DNA of 64,000 bases. It comes from Nocardioides jiangxiensis. GTDB taxonomy: Bacteria > Actinomycetota > Actinomycetes > Propionibacteriales > Nocardioidaceae. The translations under genes and the position numbers were made by a program. Shown here piece by piece: positions 12,941 to 17,863 of the stretch. The stretch covers positions 1,674,001 through 1,738,000 of the forward strand of contig NZ_JAUQTA010000001.1 in assembly GCF_030580915.1 (NCBI RefSeq), in the 5' to 3' direction. The notes beneath the pieces were generated by a model that was given only the letters and a program-made list of their open reading frames with translations, was not told the origin of the DNA and searched no databases. The first letter of the stretch is position 1, and every line of letters begins with the position of its first letter.

Positions 12941-13597
12941 TCAGAGCGAGTCAGCCGGCATCGCGAGCAGGAGCGGTGAGGTCGGGGCATCCGATCCCGC
13001 CATCGGCTCCATGCTGATCTGCAGCTCGCCCTCCCGCATCGGGACGACGACGCTCTCGGCCTCCTGGAACATCGCGACCGATGTGACCCGGCCGTGCGTC
13101 GCCCACCAGACCTCGTAGGCCATGCCTGCACCGGGATCGGTCAGGTCCCGTCCGTCGACGGCCACCATGTGCAGCCGGTGCGACATGCCGATCCGCACGG
13201 CGCCCATCGTCGTGGGCATGTCATGGGTCCGCACGTCGGCGGCGGCAAACACGTCGGACGCCGACATCGGGTCGTCGCCGCGTTGGGCGACGACGACACC
13301 ACCACCGACGGCGAGCAGTGCGGCCGCGGCGATCACGGCGCCCCGCAGCCGCCGGCCCGGTCGGCGTACGGGTCGGGTCCCGGCGGCGATGCCCATGATC
13401 CGCTCGCGGAGCTCCGCGGGCGGGGCGGTCGGGCGGTCGGAGAGGGCTGCGGCGGCTGGCCGCAGGTCCTCGACCTCCTCCCTGCAGGTCACACATGCCG
13501 TGAGGTGCTCGTCGAACGCAGCGCGCTCGGCCGGATCGAGGGCGTGCAGCAGGTAGGGACCGATCAGGGAGTGCACGTCGGGGTCATGGGCCTTCAT
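12941..13597 (-). CDS. rskA: Anti-sigma-K factor RskA
   Basis: 218-residue membrane anti-sigma factor. The cytoplasmic N-terminus carries the zinc-binding anti-sigma motif HLTACVTC (HxxxCxxC) near residues 31-38. One membrane helix follows (AVIAAAALLAVGGGVVVAQ), and the C-terminal extracytoplasmic part has the RskA fold sequence MSHRLHMVAVDG and AYEVWWATHG. The start ATG overlaps the sigK stop by one base (TGATG), so the pair is translationally coupled. In mycobacteria RskA holds SigK at the membrane until it is cleaved; the same role is expected here. Confidence 0.92.
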   Translation of the reverse strand: MKAHDPDVHSLIGPYLLHALDPAERAAFDEHLTACVTCREEVEDLRPAAAALSDRPTAPPAELRERIMGIAAGTRPVRRPGRRLRGAVIAAAALLAVGGGVVVAQRGDDPMSASDVFAAADVRTHDMPTTMGAVRIGMSHRLHMVAVDGRDLTDPGAGMAYEVWWATHGRVTSVAMFQEAESVVVPMREGELQISMEPMAGSDAPTSPLLLAMPADSL

Positions 13598-14175
13598 CAC
13601 GCCTCCTCGAGGCAGTCGCGGAGCCGGGCCAGGCCGTCGCGCATGCGGGTCTTGATGGTCGACAGTGGCCGTCCCATGCGGGCCGCGACCTGGGGGTAGG
13701 TGAAGCCCTCGTAGTAGGCGAGCGTCACCGACTCGAGCTGCAGCGGGGTCAGGCCCTCGAGGCATCGGCGTACGTCGGCCCACTCGGCTGCCGTGACCAG
13801 ATCTGCCTCGGGGCCCGGCACCTCGTGGAGCTCGCGACGGGCGGCCCTCTCCTCGCGGGCACGGCTGGCCTCGACCGACCGGACCACGTCGATCGCACGC
13901 CGGTGCGCGATCAGCGCCAGCCAGGTGCGCAACCCGCCGCGCTCCGACCGGTACTGCGCCGCTCCGCGCCAGGCCTCGAGGAAGACCTCCTGGGTGACCT
14001 CCTCGGCGCGCGCCGGATCGTGGAGCACCTGCAGGGCGGCTCCGTGGACGGCCGCCGCGAACCGGTCGTAGAGCTCGCCGAACGCGTCGAGGTCGCCCGC
14101 TGCGACGGCCGCCATCAGCTGCTGCGGCTGGGCGTGCGCCGACGGGACGGAACGGAGGAGCCCACGCCGTGGCAT
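13597..14175 (-). CDS. sigK: ECF sigma factor SigK
   Basis: 192-residue ECF sigma factor. Region 2 is seen as LDAFGELYDRFAAAVHG and VTQEVFLEAWRGAAQY, region 4 as LTPLQLESVTLAYYEGFTYP and PLSTIKTRMRDGL. It forms an operon with rskA. Two cysteines at residues 138 and 188 are exactly 50 apart, the same spacing as the redox-active Cys133-Cys183 pair I recall for Mycobacterium tuberculosis SigK. The start ATG at 14175 has GAGAGGAG upstream. A promoter matching that of the divergent oxidoreductase lies 50 bases upstream, pointing to autoregulation. Confidence 0.93.
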   Translation of the reverse strand: MPRRGLLRSVPSAHAQPQQLMAAVAAGDLDAFGELYDRFAAAVHGAALQVLHDPARAEEVTQEVFLEAWRGAAQYRSERGGLRTWLALIAHRRAIDVVRSVEASRAREERAARRELHEVPGPEADLVTAAEWADVRRCLEGLTPLQLESVTLAYYEGFTYPQVAARMGRPLSTIKTRMRDGLARLRDCLEEA

Positions 14176-14222
14176 CGACAGGCTCCTCTCGGGCGGCCGG
14201 TAGGGGTGGAGGTTCACAGTCT

Positions 14223-14281
14223 GGGTTCGGAGCAGGAGGGGCGCCGGACGGGCCGTCCGGCGCGGGTTCTGCTCCGAACCC
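14223..14281. promoter_or_regulatory. Divergent SigK-type promoters embedded in one palindrome
   Basis: Leftward (sigK-rskA): CCGTCC at 14251-14246 and CCGAAC at 14230-14225, spacer 15. Rightward (oxidoreductase): CCGTCC at 14253-14258 and CCGAAC at 14274-14279, spacer 15. The two -35 boxes lie back to back, one base apart, and 13-base arms (14223-14235 and 14269-14281) make the region a near-perfect palindrome. The same CCGTCC-N15-CCGAAC arrangement occurs a third time at 15832-15858. It is close to the mycobacterial SigK consensus (CCATCC, CCGAAT) as I recall it. Confidence 0.8.
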
Positions 14282-14286
14282 GCTAG

Positions 14287-15822
14287 GTGACCACCTTCTC
14301 GCACTCTCCCACCTCCTCCCGCGTGATGGCCGCCTGTGGCGGTCTCGCTGCCGGTGCGCTCGGCCTCGGCTTCGCCCAAGGCCTCGCGGCGGTCCTGCAC
14401 GCGAGCCCGTCGCCCCTGATCGCCCTCGGGGACCGCTTCATCGACCTGACGCCGCGGCCGTTGAAGGAGTGGGCGGTGGAGCAGTTCGGCACCGCCGACA
14501 AGACGGTGCTGCTGGGCAACATGCTGGTCGTCACGGCGCTGCTCCTGGCGGCTGTCGGGATCGCCGCGCGGCGGCACCGCCTGCTGGGGGTGGCCGGGTT
14601 CGTCGTCCTCGGGGTAGTCGACGCGCTGGCCCTGCTCGGCGGGCGAGGCGGCGCCGACCCGTCGGCGTACGTCGCACTCGTGGCCGGCCTGGCGCTCGGG
14701 TGCGCGGCGCTCTGGTGGCTGATCGGCCAGGCCGGGATGGCGCCTGTGGCGGAGGCCGAGGCTCCGCCGGGCTTCGACCGGCGGCGGTTCCTGCTGCTGG
14801 CGACGGTGATGGGCGGTGCCGGTGTCGTGGCCGGGGCAGGCCTGCCCCGCCTGGTGCCCGCTGCCACCGGCCGCGGCGGGGTCGTCCTGCCGCGCGCTGC
14901 GGATCCGGCCGGCCCGCTGCCGCGTGGTGTCGACTTCCGGCTGCCGGGTCTCACGCCCCACCTCACCCCGAACGACGACTTCTACCGGATCGACATCGCC
15001 CTCATCTCGCCGCGCCTCAACGTCGACGACTGGAAGCTGCGGGTCCGCGGCCTCGTCGACGAGCCGCTCGAGCTGAGCTATCGCGACCTGCTCGCGATGC
15101 CCCTCGTCGAACGCCGGGTGACCATCGCCTGCGTCTCCAACCCGGTCGCCGGGGAGTACATCGGCAACGCCACCTGGCTCGGCGTCCGCGTCGCCGACGT
15201 GCTGGAGCGGGCCGGCGTCCGTGCCGGAGCGGACGCCGTGCAGTCGCGCGGAGCCGACGGCATCACGATCGGTACGCCGCTCGCGGCGCTGACCGACGGG
15301 CGGGACGCCCTGCTCGCCATCGGGATCAACGGCCAGCCGCTCCCGATCGACCACGGCTTCCCGGTGCGGATGATCGTGCCCGGGCTGTACGGCTACGTGT
15401 CGGCCACGAAGTGGATCACCGAGCTGGAGGTGACGCGCTTCGCCGACTTCTCGGCGTACTGGACCGACCGGGGGTGGGCACCGCAGGGGCCGATCAAGAC
15501 CGGCTGCCGGATCGACCTGCCCGGCGATGACGTGACGGCCGGTGACGTGACCGTCGCGGGCGTGGCATGGGCCCAGCACCGCGGCATCGGCAAGGTCGAG
15601 GTGCGCGTCGACGACGGCGCGTGGCAGGTGGCCGAGCTGGCCACGGCCGATGGCATCGACACCTGGCGGCAGTGGCGGTGGACCTGGCCGGCGGCGCCCG
15701 GCACGCACCGGCTGCAGGCTCGTGCCACCGACCTCGCGGGTGCGACGCAGACCAGCGCCGTGGCGGATGTGGCCCCGGACGGCGCCACCGGCTACCCGAC
15801 CATCCACGTCCGTGTCGGATGA
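14287..15822 (+). CDS. Membrane-anchored molybdopterin oxidoreductase (sulfite oxidase-like)
   Basis: 511 residues. Five hydrophobic segments (about 15-37, 74-93, 99-118, 128-147, 168-186) are followed by an extracytoplasmic oxidoreductase molybdopterin-binding domain. IACVSNPVAGEYIG supplies the expected Mo-ligand cysteine at residue 282. A Mo-co dimerisation (Ig-like) domain follows at about 400-505. The GTG at 14287 is 8 bases after the SigK-type -10 box, so the mRNA would be leaderless; an ATG at 14326 is the alternative. Co-regulation with sigK suggests a role in envelope redox chemistry. Whether the substrate is sulfite, methionine sulfoxide or something else is unknown. Confidence 0.88.
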   Translation: MTTFSHSPTSSRVMAACGGLAAGALGLGFAQGLAAVLHASPSPLIALGDRFIDLTPRPLKEWAVEQFGTADKTVLLGNMLVVTALLLAAVGIAARRHRLLGVAGFVVLGVVDALALLGGRGGADPSAYVALVAGLALGCAALWWLIGQAGMAPVAEAEAPPGFDRRRFLLLATVMGGAGVVAGAGLPRLVPAATGRGGVVLPRAADPAGPLPRGVDFRLPGLTPHLTPNDDFYRIDIALISPRLNVDDWKLRVRGLVDEPLELSYRDLLAMPLVERRVTIACVSNPVAGEYIGNATWLGVRVADVLERAGVRAGADAVQSRGADGITIGTPLAALTDGRDALLAIGINGQPLPIDHGFPVRMIVPGLYGYVSATKWITELEVTRFADFSAYWTDRGWAPQGPIKTGCRIDLPGDDVTAGDVTVAGVAWAQHRGIGKVEVRVDDGAWQVAELATADGIDTWRQWRWTWPAAPGTHRLQARATDLAGATQTSAVADVAPDGATGYPTIHVRVG

Positions 15823-15831
15823 CGCGGTGAC

Positions 15832-15858
15832 CCGTCCGCCCGCCACCGGGCTCCGAAC
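15832..15858 (+). promoter_or_regulatory. Third SigK-type promoter
   Basis: CCGTCC at 15832-15837, a 15-base spacer and CCGAAC at 15853-15858 match the two promoters at 14223-14281 in both hexamers and spacing. It lies 36 bases before the start of the Met-rich lipoprotein gene. Confidence 0.75.
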
Positions 15859-15894
15859 CCGAGATGACCGTCCCACCGACCGAAGGGCCCAGCC

Positions 15895-16164
15895 ATGACC
15901 TCCACCGCATTCCGCCGCCTGCTCGCCGCCGCAGCCACGACCGGCGTACTCCTGACGGCAGCCGCCTGTGGGAGCGACGACAGCTCGATGACGCCGTCCG
16001 ACACCTCGAGCCCGATGACCGATCACATGTCGGAGTCGCCGATGAGCGAGTCGCCGATGACGGAGAAGTCCGACGGCATGACGGACGGGAAGTCCGACTC
16101 GATGATGGACGACGAGTCGATGTCGCCGAGCGACGACATGACGGACGGCATGAGCGACAAGTGA
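15895..16164 (+). CDS. Small Met/Ser/Asp-rich lipoprotein
   Basis: 89 residues. A signal peptide ends in the lipobox TAAAC with the lipidated Cys at 25. The 65-residue mature chain is low in complexity: 11 Met, 13 Asp and many Ser, arranged in repeats such as SESPM and DGMTDG, with no predicted fold. GAAGGG upstream supports the ATG. It is transcribed from its own SigK-type promoter, in the position where related SigK loci often carry other secreted proteins. Possible roles are a sacrificial methionine antioxidant or a metal-binding tether; neither is shown by the sequence. Confidence 0.8.
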   Translation: MTSTAFRRLLAAAATTGVLLTAAACGSDDSSMTPSDTSSPMTDHMSESPMSESPMTEKSDGMTDGKSDSMMDDESMSPSDDMTDGMSDK

Positions 16165-16225: not shown

Positions 16226-16801
16226 TCAGGCCTTCGGCACCCAGTTCACGGTTGCCTTGCCGGTGTAGTCCTGACCGTAGGTCTTGTCGTGCTCGTAGCT
16301 CAGGTAGGACTTGACGCCGACGATCCGCCGTCCGCTCGGGAAGCACGAGCGCGGGATCTTCACCTGCACGTAGTCGTAGGTGGTGCTGCTCGAGAACGCG
16401 ATCTGGCCGGTGTCGCAGTGGTTGGTGTAGTTCGGGTACCGGAGGTAGGCCCCGTTGCCGTAGACGTCGGATCGCTGCATGTCCATCTCGAACTCGCGAC
16501 CGGCCGAGTCGTAGAGCCGGGTGTTGAAGCCGAGGGTCACGCGGCTGCAGGGGATTCCGGTGCTGCAGCGGTTCGCCCAGGCCCGCACCTTGAGCCGCAG
16601 GACGACGTAGTCGCCCATGCTGTAGCTCGCGGTCGTCACGTCGGTGCGTGCCCGCTCGGCACTCGTCGGCGTGCCGTTCCACGCGATGTCGTTGGTCGCG
16701 TCGCTCACGGTCGCTGCCTGCGCCGGCGTGGCGGTCAGGGCGAGCGTGGTCGTGGCCAGGGCGACCGCGCCCAGACGGCGCAGTGTCTTCAGTCGATGCA
16801 T
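16226..16801 (-). CDS. Secreted protein with four cysteines, unknown function
   Basis: 191 residues. A Sec signal peptide with the cleavage motif TPAQA-A is followed by a beta-rich domain containing four cysteines (RCSTGIPC, NHCDTG, RSCFPS) that could form two disulfides outside the cell. Repeated patterns such as YVVLRLKVRAW and DYVQVKIPRSC suggest a beta-sandwich. I do not recognise the family. The start at 16801 is chosen because it begins the signal peptide and has GGGGGAA upstream; the frame is open to 16858. Confidence 0.8.
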   Translation of the reverse strand: MHRLKTLRRLGAVALATTTLALTATPAQAATVSDATNDIAWNGTPTSAERARTDVTTASYSMGDYVVLRLKVRAWANRCSTGIPCSRVTLGFNTRLYDSAGREFEMDMQRSDVYGNGAYLRYPNYTNHCDTGQIAFSSSTTYDYVQVKIPRSCFPSGRRIVGVKSYLSYEHDKTYGQDYTGKATVNWVPKA

Positions 16802-16905
16802 CGGTTCCCCCGAGATCCGTGGCGCGGCATCCGTGTCGCCGACGCCTTCAGGGGACATTAGACACGGGAGGCGCGGTGTTTTTCACCGGTTCGTGGCGCG
16901 GTCGC

Positions 16906-16918: not shown

Positions 16919-17863
16919 ATGAGTGCGATCGAGGGCGTCAGCGAGATCTTCGACCCGGCGGACTGGGACGAGGTGCCCGGGTTCGAGGACCTGACGGACC
17001 TCACCTACCACCGGGCCAAGGAGCACGGCACCGTCCGCATCGCCTTCGACCGGCCGGATGTCCTCAACGCGTTCCGCCCCAACACGGTCGACGAACTGCT
17101 CCGCACGCTCGAGCACGCGCGCACCAGCGCCGACGTCGGCTGCGTGATCCTCACCGGCAACGGCCCGTCCGCGAAGAACGGCAAGTGGGCGTTCTGCACC
17201 GGAGGCGACCAGCGGATCCGTGGCAAGGCCGGTTACCAGTACGAGGACAAGACCATCGGCGCGGGCGACACCGGCGCCGAGGAGCCGTCGGTCATCGACC
17301 GTGCCAAGCTCGCGCGCCTGCACATCCTCGAGTGCCAGCGGCTGATCCGGTTCATGCCCAAGGTCGTCATCTGCGTCGTCCCCGGCTGGGCCGCCGGCGG
17401 TGGCCACTCGCTCCACGTCGTCTGCGACCTGACCCTGGCCTCGCGCGAGCACGCGCGGTTCAAGCAGACCGACGCCGACGTCGGCTCGTTCGACGGCGGC
17501 TACGGCTCGGCGTACCTGGCCCGGCAGGTGGGCCAGAAGTTCGCCCGCGAGATCTTCTTCCTCGCCGACGAGTACGACGCCGAGCAGATGCACCAGATGG
17601 GCGCCGTCAACCGCGTCGTCGAGCACAGCCAGCTCGAGAAGGTCGCGCTGGAGTGGGGCCGCAAGATCAACGGCAAGTCCCCGACGGCGCAGCGGATGCT
17701 GAAGTACTCCTTCAACCTCCTCGACGACGGCCTGGTGGGCCAGCAGCTCTTCGCCGGCGAGACCACCCGACTGGCGTACATGACCGACGAGGCCCAGGAG
17801 GGTCGCGACCAGTTCCTGGAGAAGCGCGAGCCGGACTGGTCGCCGTACCCCTGGTACTACTGA
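16919..17863 (+). CDS. menB: 1,4-dihydroxy-2-naphthoyl-CoA synthase
   Basis: 314 residues, crotonase fold. It closes the second ring of the naphthoquinone in menaquinone synthesis. The oxyanion-hole region WAFCTGGDQRIRGKAGY and the second signature VVPGWAAGGGHSLHVVCDLTLAS are characteristic of MenB, as are DADVGSFDGGYGSAYLARQVG and the C-terminal EGRDQFLEKREPDWSPYPWYY. The extended N-terminus (about 20 residues) is usual in actinobacterial MenB. No other men genes lie in the window. Confidence 0.96.
   Translation: MSAIEGVSEIFDPADWDEVPGFEDLTDLTYHRAKEHGTVRIAFDRPDVLNAFRPNTVDELLRTLEHARTSADVGCVILTGNGPSAKNGKWAFCTGGDQRIRGKAGYQYEDKTIGAGDTGAEEPSVIDRAKLARLHILECQRLIRFMPKVVICVVPGWAAGGGHSLHVVCDLTLASREHARFKQTDADVGSFDGGYGSAYLARQVGQKFAREIFFLADEYDAEQMHQMGAVNRVVEHSQLEKVALEWGRKINGKSPTAQRMLKYSFNLLDDGLVGQQLFAGETTRLAYMTDEAQEGRDQFLEKREPDWSPYPWYY

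What the first reader, a model, noticed from the sequence alone, without database searches (positions are those of the whole stretch)
13597..16164. Candidate envelope redox module: SigK with Cys pair, RskA, membrane molybdo-enzyme, Met-rich lipoprotein
SigK has two Cys 50 residues apart (138, 188), the same spacing as the redox-sensing pair I recall in M. tuberculosis SigK. Its apparent targets are a sulfite-oxidase-family enzyme and a lipoprotein that is 17% methionine. One family of extracytoplasmic molybdo-enzymes (MsrP/YedY) repairs methionine sulfoxide. A working idea is that the lipoprotein is an oxidisable methionine sink or sensor regenerated by the enzyme, with SigK responding to redox state. 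No MsrQ-like haem partner is seen; the five-helix domain of the enzyme would have to take electrons another way.
Basis: inference. Interest (0 to 1): 0.82.

Follow-up and report, generated by a model that had tools for sequence, protein, structure and literature searches.

The report
Methionine-rich SigK/RskA envelope stress module
An actinobacterium carries a small self-regulated gene set in which the membrane sensor of a stress sigma factor and a surface lipoprotein are both packed with methionine, next to a sulfite-oxidase-like molybdenum enzyme; this suggests, but does not prove, a system that senses and absorbs oxidation at the cell surface.

Summary
In detail: SigK (Cys138/Cys188 aligned with M. 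tuberculosis SigK), RskA, a membrane molybdoenzyme and a 17% Met lipoprotein, with SigK-type promoters before sigK, enzyme and lipoprotein.

The enzyme has the sulfite-oxidase, not the MsrP, class and fold; the active-site tyrosine is Trp, and its membrane helices lack conserved haem histidines. The Cys pair is common and, in M. tuberculosis, its oxidised form stabilises the inhibited complex.

New here: the extracytoplasmic domain of RskA is itself Met-rich (about 10%, against 2.5% in ordinary RskA). Among 111 SigK-RskA loci, all 14 with a short FAS1-less lipoprotein after the enzyme reach 7.5% Met there, and none of 53 with the usual FAS1 (MPT83-like) lipoprotein. The tree needs only three lipoprotein switches, too few for a test. 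Seven relatives keep the Met-rich RskA without an adjacent lipoprotein.

Best reading: a variant of the mpt83-sigK-rskA cassette in which RskA senses, and the lipoprotein absorbs, methionine oxidation at the envelope. It resembles MrpX/MsrPQ systems in working, not in its parts. Copper binding and a mere relic are the main rivals. The enzyme's reaction is unknown.

The parts
12941..13597 (-). rskA: anti-sigma-K factor, 218 aa; cytoplasmic zinc-finger-like N-terminus, one predicted TM helix, Met-rich ectodomain (11 Met of 111)
   Evidence: Pfam RskA_C 35 bits, zf-HC2 34 bits; ectodomain Met; model with a confident beta-sandwich from about 121 to 218
13597..14175 (-). sigK: ECF sigma factor, 192 aa, Cys138 and Cys188
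   Evidence: PDB 4nqw_A E 1.2e-38 with both Cys aligned; NCBIfam SigK model 212.7 bits, below its cut-off 226
14225..14251 (-). SigK-type promoter of sigK-rskA (CCGTCCG-N14-CCGAAC)
   Evidence: G000:C1:1688225-1688251; the M. tuberculosis SigK consensus CCATCC/CCGAAT is recalled
14253..14279 (+). SigK-type promoter of the enzyme, ending 7 bases before the GTG start (likely leaderless)
   Evidence: G000:C1:1688253-1688279; same distance from the -10-like element in L004, L005, L091
14287..15822 (+). membrane-anchored sulfite-oxidase-family molybdoenzyme, 511 aa: four long helices, a twin-arginine fifth helix (165-189), Mo domain with Cys282, C-terminal beta domain
15832..15858 (+). SigK-type promoter of the lipoprotein
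   Evidence: G000:C1:1689832-1689858; also seen in L004, L005
15895..16164 (+). short Met-rich lipoprotein, 89 aa, mature 65 aa with 11 Met, no FAS1 domain
   Evidence: no Pfam family; 6 proteins at E 0.001 or better; UniRef's name for the N. phosphati one begins 'Pentapeptide MXKDX repea'

Best explanation
An autoregulated envelope-oxidation module, a variant of the actinobacterial mpt83-sigK-rskA cassette. Shown by sequence: SigK-type promoters before sigK-rskA, the enzyme and the lipoprotein; the lipoprotein occupies the slot where relatives carry a FAS1 (MPT83-like) lipoprotein; in my sample Met enrichment of the RskA ectodomain goes with that replacement. Inferred: oxidants (HOCl-like or other methionine-oxidising species) oxidise the Met-rich outer domain of RskA; this changes its fold or protease access, SigK is freed and makes more RskA, enzyme and lipoprotein; the Met-rich lipoprotein soaks up oxidant. 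The molybdoenzyme acts on a sulfur or S-oxide compound at the outer face of the membrane; whether it reduces the oxidised lipoprotein is open (I give that 0.2). The SigK Cys pair would be a separate cytoplasmic brake.
For: Promoters. RskA ectodomain Met: 14 of 14 short-lipoprotein loci at 7.5% or more, 0 of 53 FAS1 loci. The enrichment is confined to the ectodomain: 10.4% and 9.9% Met in the two main lineages against 2.5% in 85 ordinary RskAs, while the cytoplasmic part is 0.3-0.7% in all three groups. The most-used Met columns mostly differ between the two lineages: 7 ectodomain columns reach 0.8 in each and only column 159 is in both (1.00 and 0.83, against 0 of 85), which fits selection for Met content more than one inherited site; weaker sharing exists at 142, 176, 196 and 124. 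On the SigK tree the Nocardioides-genus clade of 11 (starred 99) lies next to a group of 5, four of them FAS1 loci with the same divergent gene order (support 93); lipoprotein type needs 3 changes. Precedents: HprS senses HOCl through two periplasmic Met (PMC10151825, passages); BcrS/AbcS controls a Met-rich peptide and MsrPQ (PMC8315932, abstract and passages); extracytosolic RskA mutations alter SigK output (PMC7509140, introduction).
Against: No expression, oxidation or binding data. Kinship: the tree offers 3 independent pairs on all branches and 1 on starred branches; the starred one agrees, and the others must, as the two traits coincide in all 67 rows, but no test is possible; the Fisher p of 1e-14 ignores kinship. 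The 7.5% line was set after seeing the data and L257 stands exactly on it (9 of 120), with a lipoprotein of only 3.7% Met. Intermediates exist: the FAS1 loci next to the Nocardioides clade have 4.0-5.6%, L265 5.8%, and L258-L260 (enzyme, no lipoprotein seen or contig cut) 5.4-6.5%. Seven loci (L084-L090) keep a Met-rich RskA with no lipoprotein after the enzyme; the search for one elsewhere in those genomes was insensitive (it found the known G190 copy only at E 0.2). L025 has the enzyme, no lipoprotein and 0.8% Met. The lipoprotein evolves fast (23 nonsynonymous against 12 synonymous codons to N. jejuensis). The enzyme is not of the MsrP class.
Confidence: 0.48

Rival explanations
1. A copper(I)/silver(I) module: the Met-rich lipoprotein buffers Cu(I) at the surface and the Met-rich RskA ectodomain senses it; the molybdoenzyme protects oxidised metal-binding Met.
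For: Met-rich motifs are classic Cu(I) ligands (recalled). MsrPQ is induced by copper and restores the Met of CusF in E. coli (PMC9302797, abstract). The Nocardioides-lineage RskAs have His125 (1.0), His143 (0.89) and His140 (0.72) among their Met.
Against: The most-used Met columns mostly differ between the two lineages and no His column above 0.6 is shared. None of the neighbouring genes that I classified is a copper gene, nor were the readable other SigK-pattern sites; I made no dedicated copper search. The Foldseek hit of the RskA model to a Cu chaperone is insignificant (E 0.02, probability 0.20, TM 0.14).
Confidence: 0.2
2. One reading: an MsrP-like enzyme regenerates the oxidised lipoprotein, and the SigK Cys pair is the redox sensor.
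For: Same cast as MrpX/MsrPQ; all under one promoter type.
Against: Enzyme class and fold; Arg234 and His356 are of the sulfite-oxidase type where E. coli MsrP has Glu and Asn; no His in TM2-4 of the window protein and none conserved there in 184 relatives; the Cys pair is widespread and its oxidised form stabilises SigK-RskA (PMC7509140).
Confidence: 0.12
3. The enzyme oxidises sulfite or another sulfur oxyanion; the lipoprotein is a FAS1-less remnant of an MPT83-like protein whose Met-rich tail has no function of its own.
For: Sulfite dehydrogenases are the nearest solved structures. FAS1 lipoproteins at the same slot have S/D/E-rich linkers with some Met, e.g. L112 and L026. Fast evolution; absence in L084-L090.
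Against: Trp stands at the SorA Tyr236 position in 155 of 184 relatives, Tyr in 29, and 28 of these 29 are outside my SigK table (as are 92 of the 155). Frame, promoter and Met content are kept in three Nocardioides, Met-rich tails recur in lineages apart on the SigK tree, and RskA Met is high with them.
Confidence: 0.2

Closest known systems
mpt83-sigK-rskA cassette (ECF18/ECF19; M. tuberculosis SigK/RskA; PMC7509140)
   Same: SigK and RskA relatives, Cys pair, SigK-type promoters, a surface lipoprotein as target
   Different: FAS1 domain of the lipoprotein missing, Met-rich tail instead; RskA ectodomain Met-rich; a membrane molybdoenzyme under the same promoter type
Brucella BcrS/AbcS-BcrXQP (PMC8315932) and Azospira yedYZ-mrpX (its sigma pair SigF/NrsF is recalled)
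   Same: ECF sigma and anti-sigma controlling a Met-rich secreted peptide and a molybdoenzyme of the wide sulfite-oxidase superfamily
   Different: Other ECF family (BcrS is ECF16), MsrP with MsrQ, MXKDX-repeat peptide; here a lipoprotein, a sulfite-oxidase-like membrane enzyme and no MsrQ over cut-off
Sco3746-type five-TM Moco proteins (Tooke et al. 2017, PMC5449189, passages)
   Same: Five TM helices, twin arginine at helix 5, C-terminal Moco domain
   Different: Sco3746 has TM His predicted to bind two haems b; none is conserved here
SorA / sulfite oxidase
   Same: Fold, Mo-Cys, Arg234, C-terminal domain
   Different: Trp at the SorA Tyr236 position, membrane anchor, no haem subunit seen beside it
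HprSR (PMC10151825, passages)
   Same: Sensing by outer-face methionines
   Different: Two-component system with two Met, not an anti-sigma factor with about eleven

Membership tests
SigK/RskA (ECF18/19) system | SigK relationship and Cys pair | tested here: met
   4nqw_A E 1.2e-38, both Cys aligned; the NCBIfam SigK model is the best, though under its cut-off, 212.7 of 226
SigK/RskA (ECF18/19) system | RskA next to sigK | tested here: met
   RskA_C and zf-HC2 over cut-off; RskA_N 20.2 bits, under its cut-off 27
mpt83-sigK-rskA cassette | FAS1 (MPT83-like) lipoprotein | tested here: not met
   No Pfam family in the lipoprotein; the own-genome paralogue locus has one, Fasciclin 107.8 bits
MsrP | NCBIfam MsrP equivalog score | tested here: not met
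   49.3 bits, cut-off 207; Foldseek 3.0e-11 against SorA 1.5e-25
MsrPQ | MsrQ haem subunit in the genome | tested here: not met
   The one Ferric_reduct protein (L279) gives 26.4 bits to MsrQ, cut-off 130
MsrP | Methionine sulfoxide reduction | not testable with these tools
   Needs an assay
SorA/SorT/SoxC sulfite dehydrogenase | NCBIfam equivalog scores | tested here: not met
   118.8, 79.4 and 92.7 bits, cut-offs 600, 570 and 420
Sulfite oxidase | Active-site Tyr (SorA Tyr236) | tested here: not met
   Trp397 in the window; 155 Trp and 29 Tyr of 184
Sco3746-type haem-Moco protein | Conserved His in TM helices 2-4 | tested here: not met
   None in the window protein; 33 of 184 rows have any His there, none conserved
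MrpX/BcrX Met-rich peptide | Homology to MXKDX family models | tested here: inconclusive
   No Pfam or NCBIfam match over cut-off; the N. phosphati protein bears the MXKDX name in UniRef; low complexity

The most novel reading that the evidence does not exclude
RskA of this type is a direct methionine-oxidation sensor: an anti-sigma factor whose outer beta-sandwich has gained about ten methionines, at largely different positions in separate actinobacterial lineages, each time in company with a Met-rich sacrificial lipoprotein in place of the FAS1 one. Sensor and sink would share one chemistry, in a Gram-positive envelope without MsrPQ.
Probability: 0.38. Interest if true: 0.82.

Novelty: new variant of a known kind. 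Interest (0 to 1): 0.62.

Why it matters
In what I read of PMC7509140 the role of the SigK cysteines is called 'to-be-determined' and the first protease that cuts RskA unknown, so the signal of SigK/RskA looks open. A natural subtype whose sensor domain and target lipoprotein are both methionine-rich points to a testable signal (methionine oxidation or Cu(I)) and offers models outside the pathogens. It would add a Gram-positive, MsrPQ-less counterpart to the Met-rich-peptide/MsrPQ hypochlorite defence, and asks what a sulfite-oxidase fold with Trp in place of the active-site Tyr does.

Tried and rejected

Counting limits: loci came by similarity to the enzyme or RskA, so the counts are not frequencies. 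One search kept 80 of 229 enzyme relatives. One search listed 150 rows and left more unlisted; I read the 30 with loci and 60 more. (82 rows in the latter) gave 30 loci each, and 20 larger stretches were added. In one search loci were merged if their SigK core was identical, and needed a SigK hit of 100 bits, an RskA within 300 bases and an ectodomain of 90 residues. L016 fell out there because its rskA is split in the assembly; its lipoprotein and the two rskA pieces were looked at apart. The Nocardiopsis-lineage set holds 9 loci and 26 proteins, some unnamed and placed by their rank in that list; P0007, P0011, P0016 and P0043-P0050 were left out. The 7.5% Met line was chosen after seeing the data.

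Literature: ten searches. By title and the start of the abstract, no listed paper links SigK or RskA with this molybdoenzyme or a Met-rich ectodomain; I opened only the five papers cited, as passages, abstract or single sections. Melnyk 2015 (Azospira) is not held and is cited through PMC8315932. The SigK consensus CCATCC/CCGAAT is recalled (one search found no paper).
Full report
What is there. On the minus strand sigK (13597-14175) and rskA (12941-13597) overlap; on the plus strand follow a membrane molybdoenzyme (14287-15822) and a short lipoprotein (15895-16164). The nearest relatives found, N. jejuensis (L004) and N. phosphati (L005), have the same order, with lipoproteins of 53 and 60 mature residues that are 17% Met.

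Regulation. The pattern CCRTCCG-N14-16-CCGAAY occurs 7 times in the 3.0 Mb genome, the reversed pattern once. Three of the 7 sites are before sigK, the enzyme and the lipoprotein, and a fourth is before the FAS1 lipoprotein of a second SigK locus in the same genome (L002, L205). The enzyme's site ends 7 bases before its GTG start, and that distance is kept in L004, L005 and L091, so a leaderless message is likely (inference).

The usual form of the cassette. Among 172 fetched enzyme loci, 56 had a SigK gene within 4.5 kb; of these, 35 had a FAS1 lipoprotein within 1.5 kb after the enzyme, 5 a Met-rich short one and 16 neither there. Another 35 enzyme loci had the FAS1 lipoprotein without a SigK found. 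The own genome has three sulfite-oxidase-family genes, all alignable over nearly the whole enzyme, membrane part included. One of them sits with a FAS1 lipoprotein, a SigK without the Cys pair and an RskA.

The Met-rich form. After adding RskA-profile searches of 396 genomes of the phylum and of 120 genomes of the family of L007's genome, Nocardiopsis, I tabulated 111 distinct SigK-RskA loci. FAS1 type: 53 loci, ectodomain Met median 2.4%, maximum 5.6%. Short lipoprotein after the enzyme: 14 loci (4 Nocardioides genus, 9 of the Nocardiopsis lineage, and L262 of another family), Met 7.5-11.4%. Enzyme but no lipoprotein: 10 loci, 7 of them at 10.6-12.4% (L084-L090), the others 0.8, 5.4 and 6.5%. 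Enzyme cut by the contig end: 2, at 6.2 and 8.1%. No enzyme found on the stretch: 32, maximum 5.8%. Cytoplasmic parts stay at 0.3-0.7% Met in every group and SigK at about 1-2%. The lipoproteins look like the S/D/E-rich linker of the FAS1 lipoproteins without the FAS1 domain; that they arose by loss of the domain is inference from slot, signal peptide and composition.

How independent. On a SigK tree of 111 rows the Nocardioides-genus Met-type forms one starred clade of 11, next (support 93) to 5 rows of which four are FAS1 loci with the same divergent order and 4.0-5.6% Met; the Nocardiopsis lineage forms another starred clade of 9; L262 lies apart. Lipoprotein type needs 3 changes, RskA Met 4. 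The tree gives three independent pairs, one of them on starred branches; that one agrees, and since the two traits coincide in all 67 rows with either lipoprotein the others cannot differ, but this is too few for a sign test. In the two large lineages 7 ectodomain Met columns each reach 0.8, and only Met159 is in both, against 0 of 85 ordinary RskAs; columns 142, 176, 196 and 124 are partly shared. This favours selection for methionine content over one metal site inherited in common.

The enzyme. The A2 profile and the model (mean pLDDT 86.2) fall with sulfite dehydrogenases (SorA E 4e-40 by profile, 1.5e-25 by Foldseek) rather than MsrP (3.5e-13 and 3.0e-11). Cys282 is in 184 of 184 relatives, Arg234 in 182, His356 in 183, Arg361 in 184; the position of SorA Tyr236 is Trp in 155 and Tyr in 29. 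Of the Tyr forms 28 are outside my SigK table, as are 92 of the Trp forms; all 21 Met-type enzymes examined have Trp. So the SigK-linked enzymes probably do not run the textbook sulfite reaction unchanged, but this is inference. The membrane domain has no conserved His, unlike Sco3746 (PMC5449189, passages).

Mechanism and its limits. In M. tuberculosis the oxidised Cys pair stabilises SigK-RskA and reduction releases SigK (PMC7509140), so the pair would oppose activation by oxidation in the cytoplasm. A signal from outside is better placed in the RskA ectodomain, where mutations are known to alter output (same paper). Methionine sensing has a precedent in HprS and a functional parallel in BcrS/AbcS-BcrXQP. 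Copper remains possible because MsrPQ and copper stress are linked in E. coli. None of this is an experiment on the present proteins.

Verdict. A real module with one promoter type; a variant of a known cassette, functionally parallel to Met-rich peptide systems of proteobacteria; the Met-rich RskA is the most unusual part.

Noticed in passing
L002 (around G000:C1:1358106-1359650): Second SigK-RskA locus in the same genome, with a FAS1 lipoprotein, a paralogous enzyme and a SigK lacking both Cys: a natural internal control.
   Followed up: yes
window 14253-14290: The enzyme's promoter ends 7 bases before its start codon, also in L004, L005 and L091: a likely leaderless mRNA.
   Followed up: partly
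window 16226-16858 (-): Predicted secreted protein with no family over cut-off, between the lipoprotein and menB; no blastp match in the 82 other loci compared, and not at that place in L004 and L005.
   Followed up: partly
window 16919-17863 (+): menB (1,4-dihydroxy-2-naphthoyl-CoA synthase, 562.7 bits) follows the module here; a very similar frame follows it in L004 and L005.
   Followed up: partly
enzyme family, position 397 of the window protein: Trp/Tyr switch at the sulfite-oxidase active-site tyrosine; 28 of 29 Tyr forms are outside my SigK table.
   Followed up: partly
L279 (G000:C1:2185982): Ferric-reductase-type membrane domain fused to a flavohemoprotein-like reductase; weak MsrQ score (26.4 bits), not near the module.
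   Followed up: partly
L016 95-840 (-): rskA of Allosalinactinospora is split over two frames in the assembly; the outer piece is Met-rich too.
   Followed up: no
L091 3076-3462 (+): Lipoprotein made of near-perfect repeats of MTESPMDDE, a sign of recent repeat expansion.
   Followed up: no
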